A stretch of 64,000 bases of DNA, taken from the NCBI GenBank assembly GCA_944384195.1, contig CALWSK010000002.1, positions 310,001-374,000 of the forward strand. Reading direction: 5' to 3'. The DNA is from an uncultured Clostridia bacterium. Lineage in GTDB: Bacteria > Bacillota > Clostridia > Lachnospirales > CAG-274. The notes beneath the pieces were generated by a model. It did no database searches and had not been told where the DNA came from. It saw only the letters and a program-made list of their open reading frames with translations. Shown here piece after piece: positions 23,448 through 32,370 of this stretch; the first letter of the stretch is position 1; each line of letters starts with the position of its first letter. The position numbers and the translations under genes were made by a program.

Positions 23448-23696
23448 TTGGATTGGAAAAGTAGATTTAAAAATCCGGTATTTTGGATAAATAATGGACT
23501 TGCTATAGTAGTTCCTATAATGGCATATTATAATTTACAAAAAGAAGATTTTACAACTTGGATTAGTATATATGATGTTATAAAAAATTCTATTAAAAAT
23601 CCATATGTTGTTTTAATGGTTATAGTATCTTTATGGAATAATATAACAAATCCCACTGTTTGTATAGGAAAAATAAGGGAGGACGAGAATGTCTAG
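23448..23696 (+). CDS. Phage holin (phi LC3 family-like)
   Basis: An 82-residue protein: short N-terminal region (DWKSRFKNPVFWIN), a hydrophobic segment (GLAIVVPIMAYY), a polar loop and a second hydrophobic segment (PYVVLMVIVSLW) followed by NNITNPT. This layout matches small phage holins of the phi LC3 type in Firmicutes. Start is TTG at 23448, 8 bp after AGGAGG. It overlaps the endolysin gene by 8 bp. No other phage gene is near. Confidence 0.8.
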   Translation: MDWKSRFKNPVFWINNGLAIVVPIMAYYNLQKEDFTTWISIYDVIKNSIKNPYVVLMVIVSLWNNITNPTVCIGKIREDENV

Positions 23697-24453
23697 AGAT
23701 ATAAAACTTTTGCATCCAGAATTACAAAAAATAATACCTAGATTTTTAGAAGATTGTAAAAAAAATGGCTTGATAGTAAAAATTACAGATACATTAAGAG
23801 ATGAGGCTACACAAAATGATTTATATGCACAAGGAAGAGAAGAAGAAGGAAATATAGTTACTTGGGTGAAATATCCTTTTAGTTCTCATAATTGGGGTAT
23901 AGCATTTGATTTTTGCAGAGATGATGGTAAGGGAGCTTTTAATGACTCTGATAACTTTTTTTATAAAGTTGGACAAATAGGTAAAAAGTATGGACTAGAA
24001 TGGGGAGGAGATTGGCGTCCTAATTCTGATAAACCACATTTAGAGTATCTTAAATATGGAGATGCAAAGAAATTATATAATAAATATAAAACATTGGATA
24101 ATTTTAAGAAAACTTGGGGGAAAGATAAATATATGTTTGTTGATAGAAAATTTAAGACAAGGGATAAGATAGAAACATTTAAGGTTATAAATGAAGAAGG
24201 AGAAAACTATATTAGTATTAGAGATATAGCAAATTTATTGAATTTAAAAGTAAGTTATGAAAATAATACAAAAATAACTATATTAGAAATGATTGAAAAT
24301 AAGATAGATTTATATTTAGATACTAAAGAAATAAAGATAAGTAGTATAAATTCTGATGGATATAATTTTGTAAAACTTAGAGAGCTTTGTGAAGCTTTGG
24401 GATATAATATTTATTTTGAAAATAATAAAATAAAAATAAAAAATAATAATTAA
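23689..24453 (+). CDS. Endolysin-like M15 peptidase with a C-terminal stalk-like domain
   Basis: A 254-residue protein. Residues 1 to about 130 are a zinc M15 (VanY/L-Ala-D-Glu peptidase, Ply500-like) domain: TLRDEATQNDLYAQGRE, SSHNWGIAFDF with the zinc ligands His and Asp, and WRPNSDKPHLEY with the catalytic Asp and the third ligand His. Residues about 165-252 look like a copper-amine-oxidase N-terminal-like repeat (YISIRDIANLLNLKVSYENN; FVKLRELCEALGYNIYFENN). No signal peptide, as expected for a holin-released phage lysin. Ribosome site GGGAGGACGAGA lies in the holin gene. Confidence 0.85.
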   Translation: MSRDIKLLHPELQKIIPRFLEDCKKNGLIVKITDTLRDEATQNDLYAQGREEEGNIVTWVKYPFSSHNWGIAFDFCRDDGKGAFNDSDNFFYKVGQIGKKYGLEWGGDWRPNSDKPHLEYLKYGDAKKLYNKYKTLDNFKKTWGKDKYMFVDRKFKTRDKIETFKVINEEGENYISIRDIANLLNLKVSYENNTKITILEMIENKIDLYLDTKEIKISSINSDGYNFVKLRELCEALGYNIYFENNKIKIKNNN

Positions 24454-24456
24454 TTA

Positions 24457-24494
24457 TATAAAAAGAGGATAGTTTTAACTATCTTCTTTTTTAT
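24457..24494 (+). terminator. Hairpin terminator, left copy of the pair flanking the CRISPR island
   Basis: Stem AAGAGGATAG / CTATCTTCTT with a loop and a run of T, directly after the endolysin gene. A 38-bp stretch (TATAAAAAGAGGATAGTTTT then A CTATCTTCTTTTTTAT) recurs at 32333-32370 with a single base difference. Confidence 0.8.
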
Positions 24495-24621
24495 GTATAT
24501 ATAATATCAATTTTATAATTAATAGTTATTAAATTTTAAATAAATTTTTATAATAAAATTAATACACATATCTTTAAATTATTAATTTTAAAAATATTTC
24601 AATACATAATATTTAAGTTAT
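24495..24621. other. AT-rich gap before the CRISPR-Cas operon
   Basis: No gene or clear regulatory element; almost entirely A and T. Confidence 0.4.
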
Positions 24622-24803
24622 ATAAATTACAAAATATAACAAAAAAATACTTGTTCGGTATATTTATTTATTATATAATAATCTTAAAGGAGATGATATA
24701 AATAAAACTTAAATAAATTACAAAATATAACAAAAAAATACTTGTTCGGTATATTTATTTATTATATAATAATCTTAAAGGAGATGATATAAATAAAACT
24801 TAA
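24622..24803 (+). repeat. Exact tandem duplication (2 x 91 bp) of the cas operon promoter and ribosome site
   Basis: Units 24622-24712 and 24713-24803 are identical by eye. Each holds TTGTTC, a 17-bp spacer and TATAAT (24651-24679 and 24742-24770), then AAAGGAGATGATATAAATAAAACTTAA. In the first unit the codons after the ribosome site read ATA AAA CTT AAA TAA; in the second the same frame continues into cas6. The operon therefore has two copies of the same promoter, the outer one giving a leader 91 nt longer. Confidence 0.9.
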
Positions 24804-24807
24804 AGTA

Positions 24808-25455
24808 ATGTATATAAAATATCCTAATATAAAAACAGAAAAAAGAAATTCTGCTAAAATAAGAGGATATTTTGGGAATAAATTTATAGATAGTATTAAA
24901 TTACATAATCATTTAGGGGATAAATTTTTATATTCTTATCCGGTTATACAATATAAAGTATTAAAAGATATACCTTTGATAGTGGGTATAGAAAATGGCA
25001 TACCAGTATTACATAATGCTATAATGAACACACAACAAATAGTCATAGGGAATTGTACATATAGTTGTGATGATATAGATATAAAGCTTGAAACAAGAGA
25101 ACTTGGGATTTCTAATAAGATGAATAAATATATATTTTTAAGTCCTTGGGTATGTTTAAATCAAGATAATTATAATAAATATAGAAAATTGAATGATAAA
25201 GATAAGAAAGCATTTTTAAATAAAATTTTAATAGGGAATATACTTTCTATGTGTAAGGGTTTAGGTATAAATATAGATAAAGAAATAGTGGTAGATACAA
25301 ATGTTAGAGAAGTTTCTTCTAATTTTAAAAATAATAAGATGATAAGTTTTTATGGTGAATTTTATACTAATTTTAATATACCCAATTATTTTGGGTTAGG
25401 TAAATCTGTATCAAGGGGTTTTGGTATGGTTAAACAGATAAGGGAGGTAGAATAA
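24808..25455 (+). CDS. cas6: CRISPR-associated endoribonuclease Cas6
   Basis: A 215-residue RAMP protein. The C-terminal glycine-rich loop YFGLGKSVSRGFGMVKQI and the N-terminal YPN...KIRGYFGNKF region match Cas6-type crRNA processing enzymes found with type III loci. It should cut the array transcript 8 nt upstream of each spacer. Start is uncertain: ATG 24808 lies 24 bp after the AAAGGAG site, too far, while the codon with proper spacing (24793) is ATA, giving IKLKV before the Met. An ancestral ATG mutated to ATA would explain this. It is followed directly by cas10. Confidence 0.85.
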   Translation: MYIKYPNIKTEKRNSAKIRGYFGNKFIDSIKLHNHLGDKFLYSYPVIQYKVLKDIPLIVGIENGIPVLHNAIMNTQQIVIGNCTYSCDDIDIKLETRELGISNKMNKYIFLSPWVCLNQDNYNKYRKLNDKDKKAFLNKILIGNILSMCKGLGINIDKEIVVDTNVREVSSNFKNNKMISFYGEFYTNFNIPNYFGLGKSVSRGFGMVKQIREVE

Positions 25456-27813
25456 GTGTATATTAAAGAAGTGGCTTTAGCAGGGCTTTTACACGATATA
25501 GGAAAATTTTATCAAAAAGCTAGAAATGCTCCTATAAATAATAAGGGACAACATCCTAAGGTATCTAAAGAATTTATAAAGACATATTTTGATTTTTTTA
25601 ATAGATATGTAGATGCTAATGTTTTAATGGAATTTGTAGCAAGGCATCACGAAGGTCAAAACTTTCCAGAAGAATTGTTAGCAGGAAAAGGGGAAGAGAG
25701 CCTTAAGAAATATACTTATATAGTAGCTATAGCAGATAACATATCTTCAAAAGAACGAGATGAAAATCAGTTAGGTAAAAAAGATTTTAGAGTAGCACCT
25801 TTAAATTGTATTTTTAATCGTGTTGATATATGCAATAAAGATGAGAAAAATATATTGTCATATTCTTCTGGAATATATAATACAAAGAATATTTTTCCTA
25901 AAGAAATAGATAAGAATACAAATTATGACAATGAACAATTAGTTAGAAATTTTACTGATAAAATAGATTTACTTGTTAATAATCCGCCTAAAAATTTTAA
26001 TCATCTTATGATTATATTAGATAATTTATTAAAAAAATATTTATGGTGTATACCTGCGTCTTCGCAAGATAAGGTGTCGGATATATCTTTATATGACCAT
26101 TTAAAGACAACTTCGGCAATAGCAAGTAGTTTATATTTATATCAAGAACATATAAATAAGATAAATAAAAATAATATAAATGATGAAAAAGATAAATATT
26201 TCTTGCTAGGATTTAATATTTCTAATATAGAAAATTATATAATAATGGCTTCTAATTGTAATAAAAAGGGAGTTAGTCGTCAGCTTAGAAGTCGTGTATT
26301 TTTTATTGATATGATTTGCGAGGCTATATCTAAAAGAATATTAGAGGAGTTTGACTTGCCTATACAAAATAGAATATTTTTAATAGGGAGTAAATGTTTT
26401 ATATTAGCACCTAAGATTGAAGAATATCTTATAAAGTTTAAAAATTTAATAAAAGAAATAAATATAGATTTATATAAAAAATATAAAGGTGATATATACA
26501 TAAGTTATGATTATATGATATTAAATAAAACACATTTTGAAAACTATGGAGAAGTTTTAGATGAATTAACTAAAAAATTAGAGCTAAATTCAAATAAGCC
26601 ATTTTTAGATATATTAACTAAAGATGAAAAATGGGATACAAGTAAATTTATACTATATAATAATTTAGAAGATAAAACATTATGTAATAATTGTGGTAAA
26701 AGAATTATAGATAAAAATAATAAATTATGTGAAGAATGTGATATGCAAATAAAAATAGGGGCTATGTTACCAAAGGCTAAATATGTTTTATTTAAAAAAG
26801 CTAGTGGATATAATCTATTTTTAGATGAGTGTATAAGTATTGTAGAAGAGATAAAAGATGAAGAGTTTGACTATATTATAAAAATGGATTATTTTAATGA
26901 AGATGATAATATAAGCTTACCTATAACTACAAAATATATAGCAAATTATATACCAGTAGATGAAAATAATAATACTTTAACATTTGAAGACATAGCAGAA
27001 AAAAGCAAAGGGAATAAAAAATTAGCTCTAATAAAAATAGATATAGATAATTTATCTTATATATTAAAATATGGGCTAAGAAAAGATGAAAAGAATATAA
27101 AAAGTGAAAAAGATTTTGATTCAATATCAAGGTTAGATACATTATCTAGAATGTTAGATATGTTTTTTACTGGATATATAAAAGATTTTATAAAAAATGA
27201 ATTTCCATATACATATTGTGTTTATTCTGGGGGGAATGAAATACTTCTTATAACACCATTTAGTGATGCAGTATCTTTAACGAGAAAAATTTATATATCT
27301 TTTAGTGATTATGTAGGGAAAAATAATGATTTTACATTATCTACAAGTATTGTAGCTTTTTCTCCAAAAACTCATATATCATTAGCTTTAGAAGAATGTA
27401 ACCAAAATTTGCAAAAGATAAAAAATAATAATGGAAATAGAGTTTATTTTATGGGGGAATATTTTTCTTATAATAATTTTGCCATTTTGTTTTTAAAAAT
27501 AGCAAAAACTATATTAAATGATATTGATAAAATAGATATAAATATTTTAAGGAGAGTTTCTAAATATAGTCAAATGTATAGAAATTTTTATGATAAAAAA
27601 GATATAATGGAGCTAATGTTTGCACCTTTATTTGATAGAGATATAAAAAGAAATTATAATGGCATAGAAAATACAGAATTTTATAAATATATAACAAAAA
27701 TAACAAATAATATAGCAGATTATAGAATTAAAAATAATGAGCTATATTATATAAAAAATGTTATAAAATATGTATTATTATTAACAAAGGAGGAAAGAAA
27801 AAATGGTATATGA
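25456..27813 (+). CDS. cas10: Type III-A CRISPR protein Cas10/Csm1 with altered cyclase motif
   Basis: A 785-residue Cas10. The HD nuclease motif is at the start (LAGLLHDIGKFYQKA) with a second ARHHEG element; a zinc ribbon LCNNCGK..LCEECD is near residues 409-430; the first palm Asp is in KIDIDNLS near residue 528. The cyclase motif, normally GGDD or GGDE, reads SGGNE (Gly592, Gly593, Asn594, Glu595), followed by the expected LTRKIY.. and STSIVAF strands. It therefore may keep single-strand DNA cleavage but lose cyclic-oligoadenylate synthesis. GTG start at 25456 after GGAGGTAGAATAA. It overlaps csm2 by 11 bp. Confidence 0.93.
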   Translation: MYIKEVALAGLLHDIGKFYQKARNAPINNKGQHPKVSKEFIKTYFDFFNRYVDANVLMEFVARHHEGQNFPEELLAGKGEESLKKYTYIVAIADNISSKERDENQLGKKDFRVAPLNCIFNRVDICNKDEKNILSYSSGIYNTKNIFPKEIDKNTNYDNEQLVRNFTDKIDLLVNNPPKNFNHLMIILDNLLKKYLWCIPASSQDKVSDISLYDHLKTTSAIASSLYLYQEHINKINKNNINDEKDKYFLLGFNISNIENYIIMASNCNKKGVSRQLRSRVFFIDMICEAISKRILEEFDLPIQNRIFLIGSKCFILAPKIEEYLIKFKNLIKEINIDLYKKYKGDIYISYDYMILNKTHFENYGEVLDELTKKLELNSNKPFLDILTKDEKWDTSKFILYNNLEDKTLCNNCGKRIIDKNNKLCEECDMQIKIGAMLPKAKYVLFKKASGYNLFLDECISIVEEIKDEEFDYIIKMDYFNEDDNISLPITTKYIANYIPVDENNNTLTFEDIAEKSKGNKKLALIKIDIDNLSYILKYGLRKDEKNIKSEKDFDSISRLDTLSRMLDMFFTGYIKDFIKNEFPYTYCVYSGGNEILLITPFSDAVSLTRKIYISFSDYVGKNNDFTLSTSIVAFSPKTHISLALEECNQNLQKIKNNNGNRVYFMGEYFSYNNFAILFLKIAKTILNDIDKIDINILRRVSKYSQMYRNFYDKKDIMELMFAPLFDRDIKRNYNGIENTEFYKYITKITNNIADYRIKNNELYYIKNVIKYVLLLTKEERKNGI

Positions 27814-28255
27814 TAATAAAAATTTTAATAAGAATAAAAACTATAATAGTAAATTAGAGCCTACTTTTCCAGAAGGATATTTAGAGGGAGGATATTTTGA
27901 AGATAAAGAAAAAAGAACTTTAAAAAGCGAATATATAGTAAAATATCCTATTCACATAGTAAAAAATCTTAAAGATGGCGACAAGAACAAAAGTAGCCAA
28001 CTTAGGAAGTATTATGACTTTGTAGTAAGGATAAAAGATACTTTAAAATATGATATAAAAACTTTTGATGAAGTTTATCCTGAAATAAATAAATTAGATT
28101 ATCATAGCACTTATGCAGAAAGTAGAAATAAGGTAACAAAGTATTTTGTAGACTTTATAAAAAAGAATTTACAAAACATACATACAAAAGAAGACTTTTT
28201 TGCTTTTGCTACACATTTTGAAGCGATTATAGCTTATTTACCAAAAGATAAATAA
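27803..28255 (+). CDS. csm2: Type III-A CRISPR small subunit Csm2
   Basis: A 150-residue, mostly helical protein. The C-terminal DFFAFATHFEAIIAYLPK and the central SQLRKYYDFVVRIKD are typical of Csm2, which lines the inner face of the Csm filament and contacts target RNA. The N-terminal 35 residues are polar and probably disordered. AAAGGAGGAAAGAAAAA precedes ATG 27803, inside the end of cas10. Confidence 0.88.
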   Translation: MVYDNKNFNKNKNYNSKLEPTFPEGYLEGGYFEDKEKRTLKSEYIVKYPIHIVKNLKDGDKNKSSQLRKYYDFVVRIKDTLKYDIKTFDEVYPEINKLDYHSTYAESRNKVTKYFVDFIKKNLQNIHTKEDFFAFATHFEAIIAYLPKDK

Positions 28256-28274
28256 TATTTAGGAGGATATAAAA

Positions 28275-28910
28275 ATGAAATTAAAAAAAGTTGTTACTAT
28301 TAGTGGGAAAATAGAATGTAAAACAGGATTATGTATAAAAGGGAGCAATAGCGACTTAAATATAGGCGGAGCAGATAGTGAAGTTATAAAAAATCCTTTA
28401 ACAGGAGAGCCTTATATACCAGGGTCTAGTATAAAAGGTAAGATGCGTTCTCAATTAGAAAAGAAATATCCTATAGCACCTAAGAAAGAGGGACAACCTT
28501 GTGGGTGTGGACAAAAAGATTGTATGATATGTACAGTTTTTGGAGCACATAGAAATCCTAATGCATCTTGCGCACCAGTTAGAATAATAGTAAGAGATGC
28601 TCCTTTAAGTAAAGAAACATTAGAGCTATTGCGAAACAGAGATTTTGAAAAAGGTAATTTTTTAGAGCTTAAGGGAGAAAATAGTATAAACAGAAAATCT
28701 GGAACGGCAGAAGCTCCAAGATTTATAGAGAGAGTTCCGGCGGGGGCTAAATTTGATTTTAAAATATTGATACAAATATTTGAAGGAGATAATGAAGATA
28801 AGCTAGTAGCTTTTGTTGAAGAAGGTTTAGCAGAAATAGAAAATAGCTATTTAGGCGGAAGTGGCTCTAGGGGATATGGAGAAGTAGAATTTACATATGA
28901 AATAAAATAA
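28275..28910 (+). CDS. csm3: Type III-A CRISPR backbone RAMP and target RNase Csm3
   Basis: A 211-residue RAMP. The motif GGADSEVIKNPLTGEPYIPG followed by SSIKGKMRS is the Csm3 signature; Asp34 sits where the target-RNA-cleaving Asp is found. A cysteine cluster (CGCGQKDCMIC, residues about 76-86) is the usual metal-binding insertion, and the C-terminal YLGGSGSRGYGEVEF is the glycine-rich loop. Several copies would form the crRNA-binding backbone and cut target RNA every 6 nt. GGAGGATATAAAA precedes ATG 28275. Confidence 0.95.
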   Translation: MKLKKVVTISGKIECKTGLCIKGSNSDLNIGGADSEVIKNPLTGEPYIPGSSIKGKMRSQLEKKYPIAPKKEGQPCGCGQKDCMICTVFGAHRNPNASCAPVRIIVRDAPLSKETLELLRNRDFEKGNFLELKGENSINRKSGTAEAPRFIERVPAGAKFDFKILIQIFEGDNEDKLVAFVEEGLAEIENSYLGGSGSRGYGEVEFTYEIK

Positions 28911-28926
28911 AAAGGAGTTGATTTAG

Positions 28927-29862
28927 TTGTTATATAAATTGACAATAAGTCCTTATTCTTCGTTTAGTTATCCAATACAGAGCGATACTTTATTTGGTGC
29001 TTTTTGTTGGAGTTATAAATATTTATATGGCACAGAAAAACTAGAAGAATTTTTAGATATATGTATTACTCAAAAGCCGCCAATTATATTTTCTAATATG
29101 TTTTTTGAAAATACCTTGCCTATACCATTATATACTTTAAATAAAATTAAAAATATAGATTGTGGAAAAGATTTACAAAAATATAAAAAGATAAAGAAGC
29201 TAAATAAAGATAGCATTTTACCTAAGAAGATATTTTTAGAAGTTTTAGAAAACAATTATGAAAGTGTACTTGATAATATAATATTGCCTAAATTATATAT
29301 ACAAACTGAAACACATAATATGGTTAGTAGAGATAACGATATAGTAAATAATTTAGATGGTGATGGTAGCTTATATAGCATAGATACATATTATAGCAAA
29401 TCAAATTTTGATATTTATATATTATGTGAAAATGATATAAAAGAATATATGCCTATTTTAGAGCTTATGTTTGAACTTGGAATAGGAAAGAAAAAATCTA
29501 CTGGTAAAGGTGGATTTAAAATAATAAAACAACCTACAATAGAAGAAGAATTAATTAAAAATTTTCAAAATGCTAATGGTTTTGTAAGTATATCTAATTT
29601 TATACCAGATAAGACAGATTCTATAAATGGATATTATAGCATTATATCAAAATTTCCTAAGCTAGATAGAGAGTTTGCAAATAGCGAAAACCCTTTTAAA
29701 AAGCCCTTATGTATGATAGAAGCAGGAAGTTGTTTTTATTATAAATTAAAAAGAGATTATTGTGGAGTATGTCTTGACAATATTTCTAGCTTATATAAAA
29801 ATATTATGATAAATGGTTGTGGTATAGCTATACCTATGTGTTTAGATGAAGATAATAATTAA
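28927..29862 (+). CDS. csm4: Type III-A CRISPR protein Csm4
   Basis: A 311-residue RAMP. QSDTLFGAFCWSYKYLYG near the N-terminus, the glycine-rich GIGKKKSTGKGGF near residue 190, and the C-terminal NPFKKPLCMIEAGSCFYYK are Csm4 hallmarks. Csm4 holds the 5' repeat tag of the crRNA and contacts Cas10. It starts with TTG at 28927 after AAAGGAG. The csm5 gene that normally follows is absent; instead cas1 begins inside the last 17 bp of this gene. Length fits Csm4 alone, so it is not a csm4-csm5 fusion. Confidence 0.9.
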   Translation: MLYKLTISPYSSFSYPIQSDTLFGAFCWSYKYLYGTEKLEEFLDICITQKPPIIFSNMFFENTLPIPLYTLNKIKNIDCGKDLQKYKKIKKLNKDSILPKKIFLEVLENNYESVLDNIILPKLYIQTETHNMVSRDNDIVNNLDGDGSLYSIDTYYSKSNFDIYILCENDIKEYMPILELMFELGIGKKKSTGKGGFKIIKQPTIEEELIKNFQNANGFVSISNFIPDKTDSINGYYSIISKFPKLDREFANSENPFKKPLCMIEAGSCFYYKLKRDYCGVCLDNISSLYKNIMINGCGIAIPMCLDEDNN

Positions 29863-30832
29863 TGAATTTGGTAGCAAAATTTCAATTAAAGAAGATACTG
29901 TATGTATAACAAATAAAAATAAAAAAGAAAGGATAGCTTTAGATTGTATATCTGAGATAGTAATATCTAATTCTTGCTTATTAACAAGTGATTTAATTTA
30001 TAAATGTATTAATAAAAATATACAATTTAGTTTTATAGATAAATATGGAAATCCTTATTTATATATTGAAAATTTGAATAATGCTTGTTCTCCTATTTTG
30101 AAAAGAAAACAGATTTTATTAAATAAAAATAGTTTAGGTATAAAAATAGTAAAAAATATTATAATAAAAAAATTAAAAAATAGGCAATTACATTTAAGTG
30201 AAATTGCTAAAAATAGAAATAATGATATAAAAGATGAAATTAAAGTTTGTATTAAAAATATTCAGGAATATATTAATCTTTTAGAAAATTTAAATGGAAA
30301 TAAAATAATAGATATAAGACAATTATTACAATCATACGAAGGTAATGCTGGAAAATTATATTTTAAACAAATATCTAAACTATTAAAACCAAAATATAAA
30401 TTTGAAGGAAGAAGTTTTAACCCTTCAAGAGATTTTTATAATTGTATGTTAAATTATAGTTATGGTGTTATGTATGGGAAAATAAATGAATATTGTATAA
30501 GAGCAAGATTAGATCCATATATAGGGATAATGCATGCAGATATATATAATAGGCCGACTTTAACATATGATTTAATAGAACCGTATAGATATTATTGTGA
30601 AAAAACTGTATTTAAATTATTTTCTAAAAGTATGGTGAAAGATAATATGTTTTTTAAAATTCCAAATGGATATTATTTAAATGAAGAAGGAAAAAAGTTG
30701 TTATTGACAGAATTTTACAAAACTTTAAATATTAAAATTAAATTGGAAAGAAAAAATATAACTATTAGTAATAAAATAAAAAATGATATTATTTTATTAG
30801 CTAAGTTTATAGGAGATAGTGATATATGTTAA
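29846..30832 (+). CDS. cas1: CRISPR adaptation integrase Cas1
   Basis: A 328-residue Cas1 with all catalytic residues visible: Glu165 in SYEGNAGKLYF, His230 in YIGIMHADIY and Glu245 in YDLIEPYR. With Cas2 it inserts new spacers at the leader end. The N-terminal beta domain (MKIIINEFGSKISIKEDTVCI) is intact. It overlaps csm4 by 17 bp and lacks its own strong ribosome site, so its translation is coupled. No reverse transcriptase domain is fused. Confidence 0.95.
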   Translation: MKIIINEFGSKISIKEDTVCITNKNKKERIALDCISEIVISNSCLLTSDLIYKCINKNIQFSFIDKYGNPYLYIENLNNACSPILKRKQILLNKNSLGIKIVKNIIIKKLKNRQLHLSEIAKNRNNDIKDEIKVCIKNIQEYINLLENLNGNKIIDIRQLLQSYEGNAGKLYFKQISKLLKPKYKFEGRSFNPSRDFYNCMLNYSYGVMYGKINEYCIRARLDPYIGIMHADIYNRPTLTYDLIEPYRYYCEKTVFKLFSKSMVKDNMFFKIPNGYYLNEEGKKLLLTEFYKTLNIKIKLERKNITISNKIKNDIILLAKFIGDSDIC

Positions 30833-31113
30833 TATGGATTTTATATGATATAAAAAATAATATAAATAGAAATAAAGTTTTTTCTATTTGTAAAAATTTT
30901 GGAATGTTCCAAATACAAAAAAGTGTATTTTTAGGTATATTAGATGAAGATAGAAAGGATATATTTTTAGAAAATTTAAAAAATAATATGGAAAAGGAAG
31001 ATAGTATAGTTATATTACCAACCACAAAAAATAATATTAAAAATAGTATAGTTTTGGGTAAAGAGATAGATTTTGATTTACCATTAAGAGAAAAACAACT
31101 TATGTTTTTTTAA
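30826..31113 (+). CDS. cas2: CRISPR adaptation protein Cas2
   Basis: A 95-residue Cas2: ferredoxin-like fold starting MLIWILYDIKNN with the conserved Asp8, then FGMFQIQKSVFLGIL and the DSIVILPTT strand. It bridges Cas1 dimers in the integrase complex. It overlaps cas1 by 7 bp (ATG 30826). It is the last cas gene; the leader and array follow. Confidence 0.93.
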   Translation: MLIWILYDIKNNINRNKVFSICKNFGMFQIQKSVFLGILDEDRKDIFLENLKNNMEKEDSIVILPTTKNNIKNSIVLGKEIDFDLPLREKQLMFF

Positions 31114-31296
31114 AGGGATTTTTTGAATATTTTAGTTAAAAAAAGGAGATATGGCTATTTACAAGCCTTTCTTCTGTTTTAAAAAATATATCAAAATGCT
31201 TGATTTAGATATATTTTTATGATATAATAATGAAAAATTAGAGCTTGTAATTATTTAAGTTTTTGCTTAAAATTTAGAGTTTTTTCTAAAAAATGG
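31114..31296 (+). promoter_or_regulatory. CRISPR leader with array promoter
   Basis: AT-rich region between cas2 and the first repeat. It has a promoter TTGATT (31200-31205), 17-bp spacer, TATAAT (31223-31228), pointing into the array. Two small hairpins follow before repeat 1: TTTAAG-ttttg-CTTAAA (31255-31271) and TTTAGA-N6-TCTAAA (31273-31290). A 23-codon frame at 31151-31222 (MAIYKPFFCFKK..) has AAAAGGAG only 2 bp before its ATG and is doubtful. Direction agrees with the degenerate repeat at the far end. Confidence 0.75.
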
Positions 31297-32329
31297 GTCT
31301 GAAAAGACGTTCCAATATAACAAGGATTGAGACTAGATGCTAGGTCTATATCGCTATACATTGACTTAATATGTCTGAAAAGACGTTCCAATATAACAAG
31401 GATTGAGACTCTTATCTTCTGTTGTACCTTGCCAAAGCTACCCTCTAGTCTGAAAAGACGTTCCAATATAACAAGGATTGAGACTGAATATGAAAAAAGA
31501 GAAGTTTTATGGAATGAAGTTGAAAGTCTGAAAAGACGTTCCAATATAACAAGGATTGAGACTACTTATTGTCATTTTATTCCTTTTCTTGTATAATTGT
31601 CTGAAAAGACGTTCCAATATAACAAGGATTGAGACTGAATATGAAAAAAGAGAAGTTTTATGGAATGAAGTTGAAAGTCTGAAAAGACGTTCCAATATAA
31701 CAAGGATTGAGACTGATATAACTTGCCTATACACCTAACACCTTTAACATCTACCGTAGTCTGAAAAGACGTTCCAATATAACAAGGATTGAGACACTTA
31801 CACTCCAACGTGTCCGTTGACTTTGCCTTTACACTGTCTGAAAAGACGTTCCAATATAACAAGGATTGAGACAAGGAGGCTTTAATTATGAAAAGAAACT
31901 TAATAGAACAGTCTGAAAAGACGTTCCAATATAACAAGGATTGAGACTAACTTCAATCAACTCCTTTTCTTTTTATTTTTGTAATTTGTCTGAAAAGACG
32001 TTCCAATATAACAAGGATTGAGACCCCAAGAAACATCACGCCGTAAAAAAAAACGGCGTAATGGTCTGAAAAGACGTTCCAATATAACAAGGATTGAGAC
32101 CAATAACTTCATCTGCTAAATCTTTATCTTCTTTATGTGGTCTGAAAAGACGTTCCAATATAACAAGGATTGAGACATCTATTTGAGATTTATTTTTCAT
32201 TTTTAATGCTAATTCTTTGTCTGAAAAGACGTTCCAATATAACAAGGATTGAGACAAAATAGCTTTTTTTATCGCCTTGCGTTCGCTTTCTAATTGTGTC
32301 TGAAAAGACGTTCCAAAATAACAAGGATT
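31297..32329 (+). CRISPR. CRISPR array, 14 repeats and 13 spacers
   Basis: Repeat of 37 bp: GTCTGAAAAGACGTTCCAAT then ATAACAAGGATTGAGAC. Thirteen copies are identical; the fourteenth (32298-32329) has T20 changed to A and is cut after GGATT, marking the trailer end. Spacers are 36-45 bp: 31334, 31410, 31485, 31563, 31636, 31714, 31796, 31873, 31948, 32025, 32101, 32177 and 32256 are their starts. Spacers 3 (31485-31525) and 5 (31636-31676) are identical 41-mers. The last 8 nt, ATTGAGAC, would be the crRNA 5' tag. The repeat begins with a possible GTCT-GAAA-AGAC stem-loop. Confidence 0.98.
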
Positions 32330-32332
32330 TAA

Positions 32333-32370
32333 TATAAAAAGAGGATAGTTTTATCTATCTTCTTTTTTAT
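32333..32370 (+). terminator. Hairpin terminator at the array end, right copy of the flanking pair
   Basis: Same 38-bp sequence as at 24457-24494 except one base in the loop region (T for A). It abuts the truncated last repeat and has a TTTTTT tail, so it ends the array transcript. Confidence 0.85.

What the first reader, a model, noticed from the sequence alone, without database searches (positions are those of the whole stretch)
24808..32329. Reduced type III-A CRISPR system with its own Cas1-Cas2
The gene order cas6-cas10-csm2-csm3-csm4-cas1-cas2-array is continuous, with short gaps or overlaps. Compared with canonical III-A loci it lacks csm5 and csm6, carries no other CARF or SAVED effector gene between the flanking hairpins, and has an altered Cas10 cyclase motif. 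The HD nuclease and Csm3 RNase residues look intact. The set suggests a compact Csm complex relying on RNA and DNA cleavage only. Csm systems without Csm6 have been described, but loss of Csm5 together with a GGNE Cas10 and a working adaptation pair is a combination I do not recall.
Basis: partly seen in the sequence, partly recalled or inferred. Interest (0 to 1): 0.8.

Follow-up and report, generated by a model that had tools for sequence, protein, structure and literature searches.

The report
Type III-A CRISPR clade lacking Csm5
This is a complete, probably working bacterial CRISPR immune system of type III-A that, like three relatives in other bacteria, has lost the protein that normally caps the targeting complex, and in this one genome it has also lost the alarm-signal branch, leaving direct cutting of invader RNA and DNA.

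Summary
Confirmed. Window 24808-32333 holds cas6b-cas10-csm2-csm3-csm4-cas1-cas2 and a 13-spacer array on one gap-free contig. The genome (98.8% complete) has no csm5, no RAMP gene beyond csm3 and csm4, no Csm6-family gene, one cas1 and one array. Cas10 keeps its HD residues but reads GGNE instead of GGDD; Csm3 keeps its catalytic Asp.

Three other loci also lack it (same genus; a Lachnospiraceae MAG; a third family). In a tree of 50 Cas10s the four form one clade (97/93), while all 39 other judgeable III-A loci carry a long second Cas7 gene (Csm5). The clade's output varies: two members lost HD but keep GGDD plus Csm6 or Csx1; one has HD and GGDD but no Csm6; the window alone has HD, GGNE and no signalling protein.

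It looks alive: dN/dS 0.13-0.33, perfect repeats, and two spacers matching prophage and relaxase sequences in sister species.

Likely mechanism (inferred): an uncapped Cas10-Csm4-Csm3/Csm2 filament on untrimmed crRNA cuts target RNA (Csm3) and ssDNA (HD) without cOA signalling. New variant of a known kind.

The parts
24460..24494 (+). terminator-like hairpin upstream of the locus, 34/35 identical to the one after the array
   Evidence: pattern search, 0 expected by chance; folds at -14.1 kcal/mol
24618..24804 (+). 91-bp tandem duplication (2.1 copies, 98%) upstream of cas6, holding a promoter-like stretch and a Shine-Dalgarno-like AAAGGAGA
   Evidence: Tandem Repeats Finder; sequence
24808..25455 (+). 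cas6 (Cas6b type), crRNA processing
   Evidence: Pfam Cas6b_C 2e-43 and Cas6b_N 4e-24; PADLOC Cas6b 2e-75
25456..27813 (+). cas10/csm1: HD intact, palm2 motif GGNE
   Evidence: TIGR02578 5e-134; motif columns; PDB Csm1 match 6e-32
27803..28255 (+). csm2 (Cas11 small subunit)
   Evidence: TIGR01870 2e-12, Pfam Csm2_III-A 1e-14
28275..28910 (+). csm3 (Cas7 backbone, RNase Asp D34 present), the only Cas7-group gene
   Evidence: TIGR02582 3e-62; D34 invariant; PDB Csm3 match
28927..29862 (+). csm4 (Cas5 group)
   Evidence: TIGR01903 2e-32
29846..30832 (+). cas1 (closest to Cas1b), conserved Glu, His and Asp present (E165, H230, D242)
   Evidence: TIGR00287 6e-63; PADLOC Cas1b 7e-90; alignment
30826..31113 (+). 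cas2
   Evidence: TIGR01573 6e-15
31114..31296 (+). leader region between cas2 and the first repeat (inferred from position)
   Evidence: sequence; the degenerate repeat lies at the far end
31297..32333 (+). CRISPR array: 13 perfect 37-bp repeats, 13 spacers of 36-45 nt, degenerate last repeat
31563..31598 (+). spacer 4, matches prophage-type regulatory stretches in six of seven other genomes of the genus
32177..32218 (+). spacer 12, antisense to relaxase genes in two sister species
32336..32370 (+). terminator-like hairpin directly after the array

Best explanation
A functional type III-A derivative belonging to a clade whose common ancestor lost Csm5. Cas6 cuts the array transcript (inferred); Cas10-Csm4 bind the 5' handle and Csm3/Csm2 copies coat the crRNA with no Csm5 cap, so crRNA 3' ends stay untrimmed or are trimmed passively by host nucleases (inferred). 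On pairing with invader mRNA, Csm3 cuts the RNA and the Cas10 HD domain cuts exposed ssDNA (catalytic residues shown, activity inferred). GGNE most likely abolishes cOA synthesis, and no Csm6-family partner exists in the genome. Cas1-Cas2 supply new spacers. Shown here: gene content, genome-wide absence of Csm5 and Csm6, the clade, motif states, purifying selection, protospacers in mobile elements of the genus. Inferred: complex assembly, crRNA ends, enzyme activities.
For: No csm5 or other RAMP in the genome; the same absence in three relatives forming one clade with 97/93 support, against 39 of 39 other loci with a long Cas7. HD and Csm3 residues intact. GGNE with GGDD in the nearest relative and no Csm6. 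dN/dS 0.13-0.33. Protospacers in sister-species prophages and relaxase genes. In S. epidermidis, deletion of csm5 stops crRNA trimming but the rest of the complex forms (PMC9762709).
Against: Deleting csm5 abolishes crRNA maturation in the model system, so Csm5-free immunity is unproven. No expression or biochemical data. dN/dS reflects the whole branch to G002, including a time before GGNE. About 1.2% of the genome may be missing and only the Csm6 family was searched among CARF proteins.
Confidence: 0.62

Rival explanations
1. The locus is decaying: Csm5, Csm6 and the cyclase were lost and the remaining genes no longer give immunity.
For: Several canonical parts are missing, and the motif loss is recent. 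Loss of csm5 removes crRNA maturation in S. epidermidis.
Against: All seven genes are full-length and dN/dS is 0.13-0.33; 13 repeats are identical; spacers match mobile elements of the genus; Csm5-free loci persist in three families.
Confidence: 0.15
2. Csm5's role is filled in trans by an unrecognised protein, a diverged Csm5 outside the locus or in the unassembled 1%, or a host nuclease partner; the complex is capped after all.
For: Capping and trimming are important in model systems (PMC10289348); one Csm5-free relative (G658) has a second RAMP cluster elsewhere.
Against: The RAMP family finds only Csm3 and Csm4 in the window genome, in G002 and in G363, so three genomes would need the same hidden part.
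Confidence: 0.14
3. The GGNE Cas10 still makes a nucleotide messenger that acts on an effector encoded elsewhere.
For: The DxD of the first palm2 motif is intact (aa 529-531). Palm2 is still under purifying selection (dN 0.21, dS 0.92). Variants such as GGDE and GGED occur beside effectors (PMC11229360).
Against: The first motif Asp, a metal ligand in this family (own knowledge), is Asn; GGNE is not among the variants reported beside effectors. No Csm6 in the genome. Palm2 is also structural, so its conservation is not specific.
Confidence: 0.09

Closest known systems
Canonical type III-A (Csm) CRISPR-Cas, e.g. Staphylococcus epidermidis, Streptococcus thermophilus
   Same: Cas10 with HD, Csm2, Csm3 with catalytic Asp, Csm4, Cas6, cas1-cas2, array
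   Different: No Csm5, no Csm6, GGNE instead of GGDD
Csm5-less relatives found here: G002 (CALWDX010000026.1), G363 (CANQHX010000038.1), G658
   Same: cas10-csm2-csm3-csm4 without csm5; one Cas10 clade
   Different: G002: GGDD, no cas1 in genome; G363: HD lost, GGDD, Csm6; G658: HD lost, GGDD, Csx1-type gene, second RAMP cluster in the genome
Variant III-A2 (2025 classification, PMC12669027)
   Same: III-A derivative with one subunit missing
   Different: III-A2 lacks Cas11 and is predicted to signal; here Cas11 (Csm2) is present, Csm5 is missing and the cyclase motif is altered
[quoted passage not shown]
   Same: Cyclase inactivated, effectors lost, HD kept
   Different: Those lack adaptation genes and Cas7 catalytic Asp; here both are present
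Cyclase-dead III-A loci L037 and L129 (found here)
   Same: HD kept, palm motif lost
   Different: They keep Csm5 and form a separate pair in the tree

Membership tests
Type III CRISPR-Cas | Cas10 large subunit | tested here: met
   TIGR02578 5e-134; PDB Csm1 chains
Subtype III-A | Csm2 (signature small subunit) with Csm3 and Csm4 | tested here: met
Canonical III-A (Csm1-5 complex) | Csm5 terminal Cas7 subunit | tested here: not met
   No Csm5 or extra RAMP in the genome; all 39 comparison loci have it
Canonical III-A (Csm1-5 complex) | Csm6 or other cOA effector | tested here: not met
   No Csm6 in the genome; other CARF/SAVED families not searched genome-wide
Canonical III-A (Csm1-5 complex) | Cyclase motif GGDD | tested here: not met
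   GGNE at aa 592-595
Canonical III-A (Csm1-5 complex) | HD nuclease residues and Csm3 catalytic Asp | tested here: met
Csm5-less III-A clade (proposed here) | Common Cas10 ancestry of the Csm5-less loci | tested here: met
   One clade, 97/93 support, 96% of 200 bootstrap trees; deepest member L128 has a long branch
III-A2 | No Cas11 | tested here: not met
   Csm2 present
III-G / III-H | No adaptation module, Cas7 Asp lost | tested here: not met
   cas1-cas2 present, Csm3 D34 present
Functional Csm complex | RNA and ssDNA cleavage, crRNA loading | not testable with these tools
   Needs biochemistry

The most novel reading that the evidence does not exclude
A stable, ancestrally Csm5-free branch of type III-A works with an uncapped filament on untrimmed crRNAs, and within it the output has been split: some members keep only signalling (HD lost, GGDD plus Csm6 or Csx1), while this one keeps only direct RNA and DNA cutting.
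Probability: 0.55. Interest if true: 0.72.

Novelty: new variant of a known kind. Interest (0 to 1): 0.62.

Why it matters
Csm5 is regarded as the cap that ends the Csm3/Csm2 filament and recruits host nucleases to trim the crRNA; in S. epidermidis maturation fails without it. A natural clade without Csm5 makes it testable whether capping and 3' trimming are needed for immunity at all, and offers four-subunit Csm complexes that would be simpler to rebuild as RNA-targeting tools. The clade also gives close natural contrasts (HD only, cyclase only, both) on the same Csm5-less scaffold.

Tried and rejected
Csm5 fused to or hidden in other genes: rejected, Csm3 (211 aa) and Csm4 (311 aa) have normal lengths and no free ORF lies between the genes. 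Csm5 remnant in the window or relatives by six-frame HMM search: only Csm3 answered. My own Csm5 profile drifted into Csm3 during iteration, so loci were judged by the presence of a second, long Cas7 ORF and not by profile name. Assembly gap: rejected. Relatives on viral contigs and plasmids: none. Protospacers in phage, plasmid and viral collections: none; one 22-nt match of spacer 13 stops abruptly in a GC-richer phage and is taken as chance. Structure prediction was not used: families were clear by sequence, and single chains cannot test capping.

Full report
Observation. The reported genes are all present, in the stated order, with short gaps or overlaps, and curated models name each one: Cas6 (Cas6b type), Cas10/Csm1, Csm2, Csm3, Csm4, Cas1, Cas2. 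The array has 13 identical 37-bp repeats, 13 spacers (two of them identical through a 116-bp duplication) and a degenerate last repeat. The csm4-cas1 junction is a 17-bp overlap in a gap-free window.

Genome-wide tests. The window lies on a 374-kb contig of a 1.66-Mb, 98.8% complete genome. A Csm5 model finds only Csm3; the general RAMP family finds Csm3 and Csm4 and nothing else; a profile of 11 Csm6 proteins finds nothing; there is one cas1 and one array with this repeat.

Relatives. The closest locus is in the same genus (G002 = CALWDX010000026.1): cas6-cas10-csm2-csm3-csm4, Cas10 69% identical, repeat almost the same, no csm5, no Csm6, no cas1 in the genome, and plasmid/ICE-type helicase, ParB and primase-like genes next to it. 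The next is a Lachnospiraceae MAG (G363 = CANQHX010000038.1): cas10-csm2-csm3-csm4-csm6, again no csm5 and no other RAMP. A third, G658 in another family, has cas10-csm2-csm3-csm4-cas6 and a Csx1-type CARF-HEPN gene nearby, and again no csm5. Its genome also has a separate RAMP cluster with long, fused ORFs at 1.11 Mb. In a maximum-likelihood tree of 50 Cas10 proteins these four are one clade (97/93; 96% of bootstrap trees). Of all other loci in which csm4 and at least 1.2 kb beyond it could be read, 39 of 39 have a second, long Cas7 gene, i.e. Csm5. Loss of Csm5 is thus best read as one ancestral event. The deepest member, L128, has a long branch, so its place is the least certain.

Catalytic sites. 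Window Cas10 keeps the HD residues (H13-D14, H64-H65, D94) and the DxD of the first palm2 motif, but reads GGNE. The same-genus relative reads GGDD, so GGNE is derived. Among 47 aligned Cas10s only the window and L037 lack a GGDD-type motif; a separate pair, L037 and L129, is cyclase-dead yet keeps Csm5. The Lachnospiraceae and G658 Cas10s have lost HD (YS and HG at the HD position) but keep GGDD and carry Csm6 or Csx1. The clade therefore contains signalling-only members, one member with both active sites but no Csm6, and the window, which by sequence retains only direct cleavage. Csm3 D34, the expected RNase residue, is invariant.

Is it alive? Between the window and G002 the five shared genes show dN/dS of 0.13-0.33, and palm2 does not evolve faster than the rest of Cas10. 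Spacer 4 matches, at 88-100% and ending at the spacer borders, a repeated regulatory stretch near phage-type genes (HTH repressors, BRO/ORF6C antirepressor, RecT, Rep) in six of the seven other genomes of the genus. Spacer 12 is antisense to relaxase genes in two sister species (91% and 86%), the orientation a type III crRNA needs. The own genome has no such match to either spacer. No match was found in phage, plasmid or viral collections. Spacers drawn from the genus' own mobile elements, with perfect repeats and an intact cas1-cas2 pair, speak for a working system. They do not prove that interference works now.

Mechanism. In canonical Csm complexes Csm5 blocks growth of the Csm3 and Csm2 filaments and helps host nucleases trim the crRNA (PMC10289348). 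In S. epidermidis, deleting csm5 abolishes trimming while the rest of the complex still forms (PMC9762709; PMC6447361). The simplest mechanism for this clade is therefore a four-protein complex on crRNAs left at Cas6-cut length (8-nt handle + 36-45-nt spacer + about 29 nt of repeat, which begins with a GUCU-GAAA-AGAC hairpin) or trimmed without guidance. RNA cleavage by Csm3 and ssDNA cleavage by HD follow from intact residues. Loss of cOA synthesis follows from GGNE and the absence of Csm6. All of this paragraph's application to the window is inference.

Comparison with known systems. Recent surveys give about 92-97% of Cas10s as cyclase-positive and list GGDD variants seen beside effectors (AGDD, GGED, GGDE and others, not GGNE) (PMC11229360; PMC12669027). 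[quoted passage not shown] its main text does not mention csm5. Searches of the held library for Csm5-less systems gave only the S. epidermidis deletion work and structure; subscription journals and supplementary tables were not covered. By signature gene (Csm2) this is a III-A derivative; by subunit content it is not a canonical Csm system. Cas1 and Cas6 are closest to type I-B families, so the operon looks assembled from modules.

Verdict. Real, well bounded, probably functional; a new variant of a known kind. Its interest lies more in the Csm5-free clade than in the reduced locus alone.

Noticed in passing
window 23448-24453: Phage-type lysis cassette (holin, then a VanY/M15-type endolysin with a Cu-amine-oxidase-N-like domain) alone between rqcH/fbpA and the CRISPR locus.
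   Followed up: partly
window 24460-24494 and 32336-32370: A 35-bp terminator hairpin, 34/35 identical, brackets the whole CRISPR-Cas locus; it may be a trace of how the locus was inserted.
   Followed up: partly
window 24618-24804: A 91-bp unit with promoter-like and ribosome-binding sequences is tandemly duplicated (98%) just before cas6.
   Followed up: no
window 32025-32063: Spacer 10 contains a strong terminator-like inverted repeat (11 pairs), which could affect transcription of the array or folding of its crRNA.
   Followed up: no
L037 and L129: A second, separate III-A lineage has lost the GGDD motif altogether while keeping Csm5 and HD, with no Csm6 seen nearby.
   Followed up: partly
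L139-L144, L145, L147-L149, L151: A short regulatory stretch (ATACAAGAAAAGGA boxes in inverted pairs) recurs in phage-type regions across the genus and is the target of spacer 4.
   Followed up: partly
L038 5792-16099: The same-genus Csm5-less system lies beside a 2055-aa helicase, ParB and Toprim/primase-like genes typical of plasmids or integrative elements, so this module may travel on mobile elements.
   Followed up: partly
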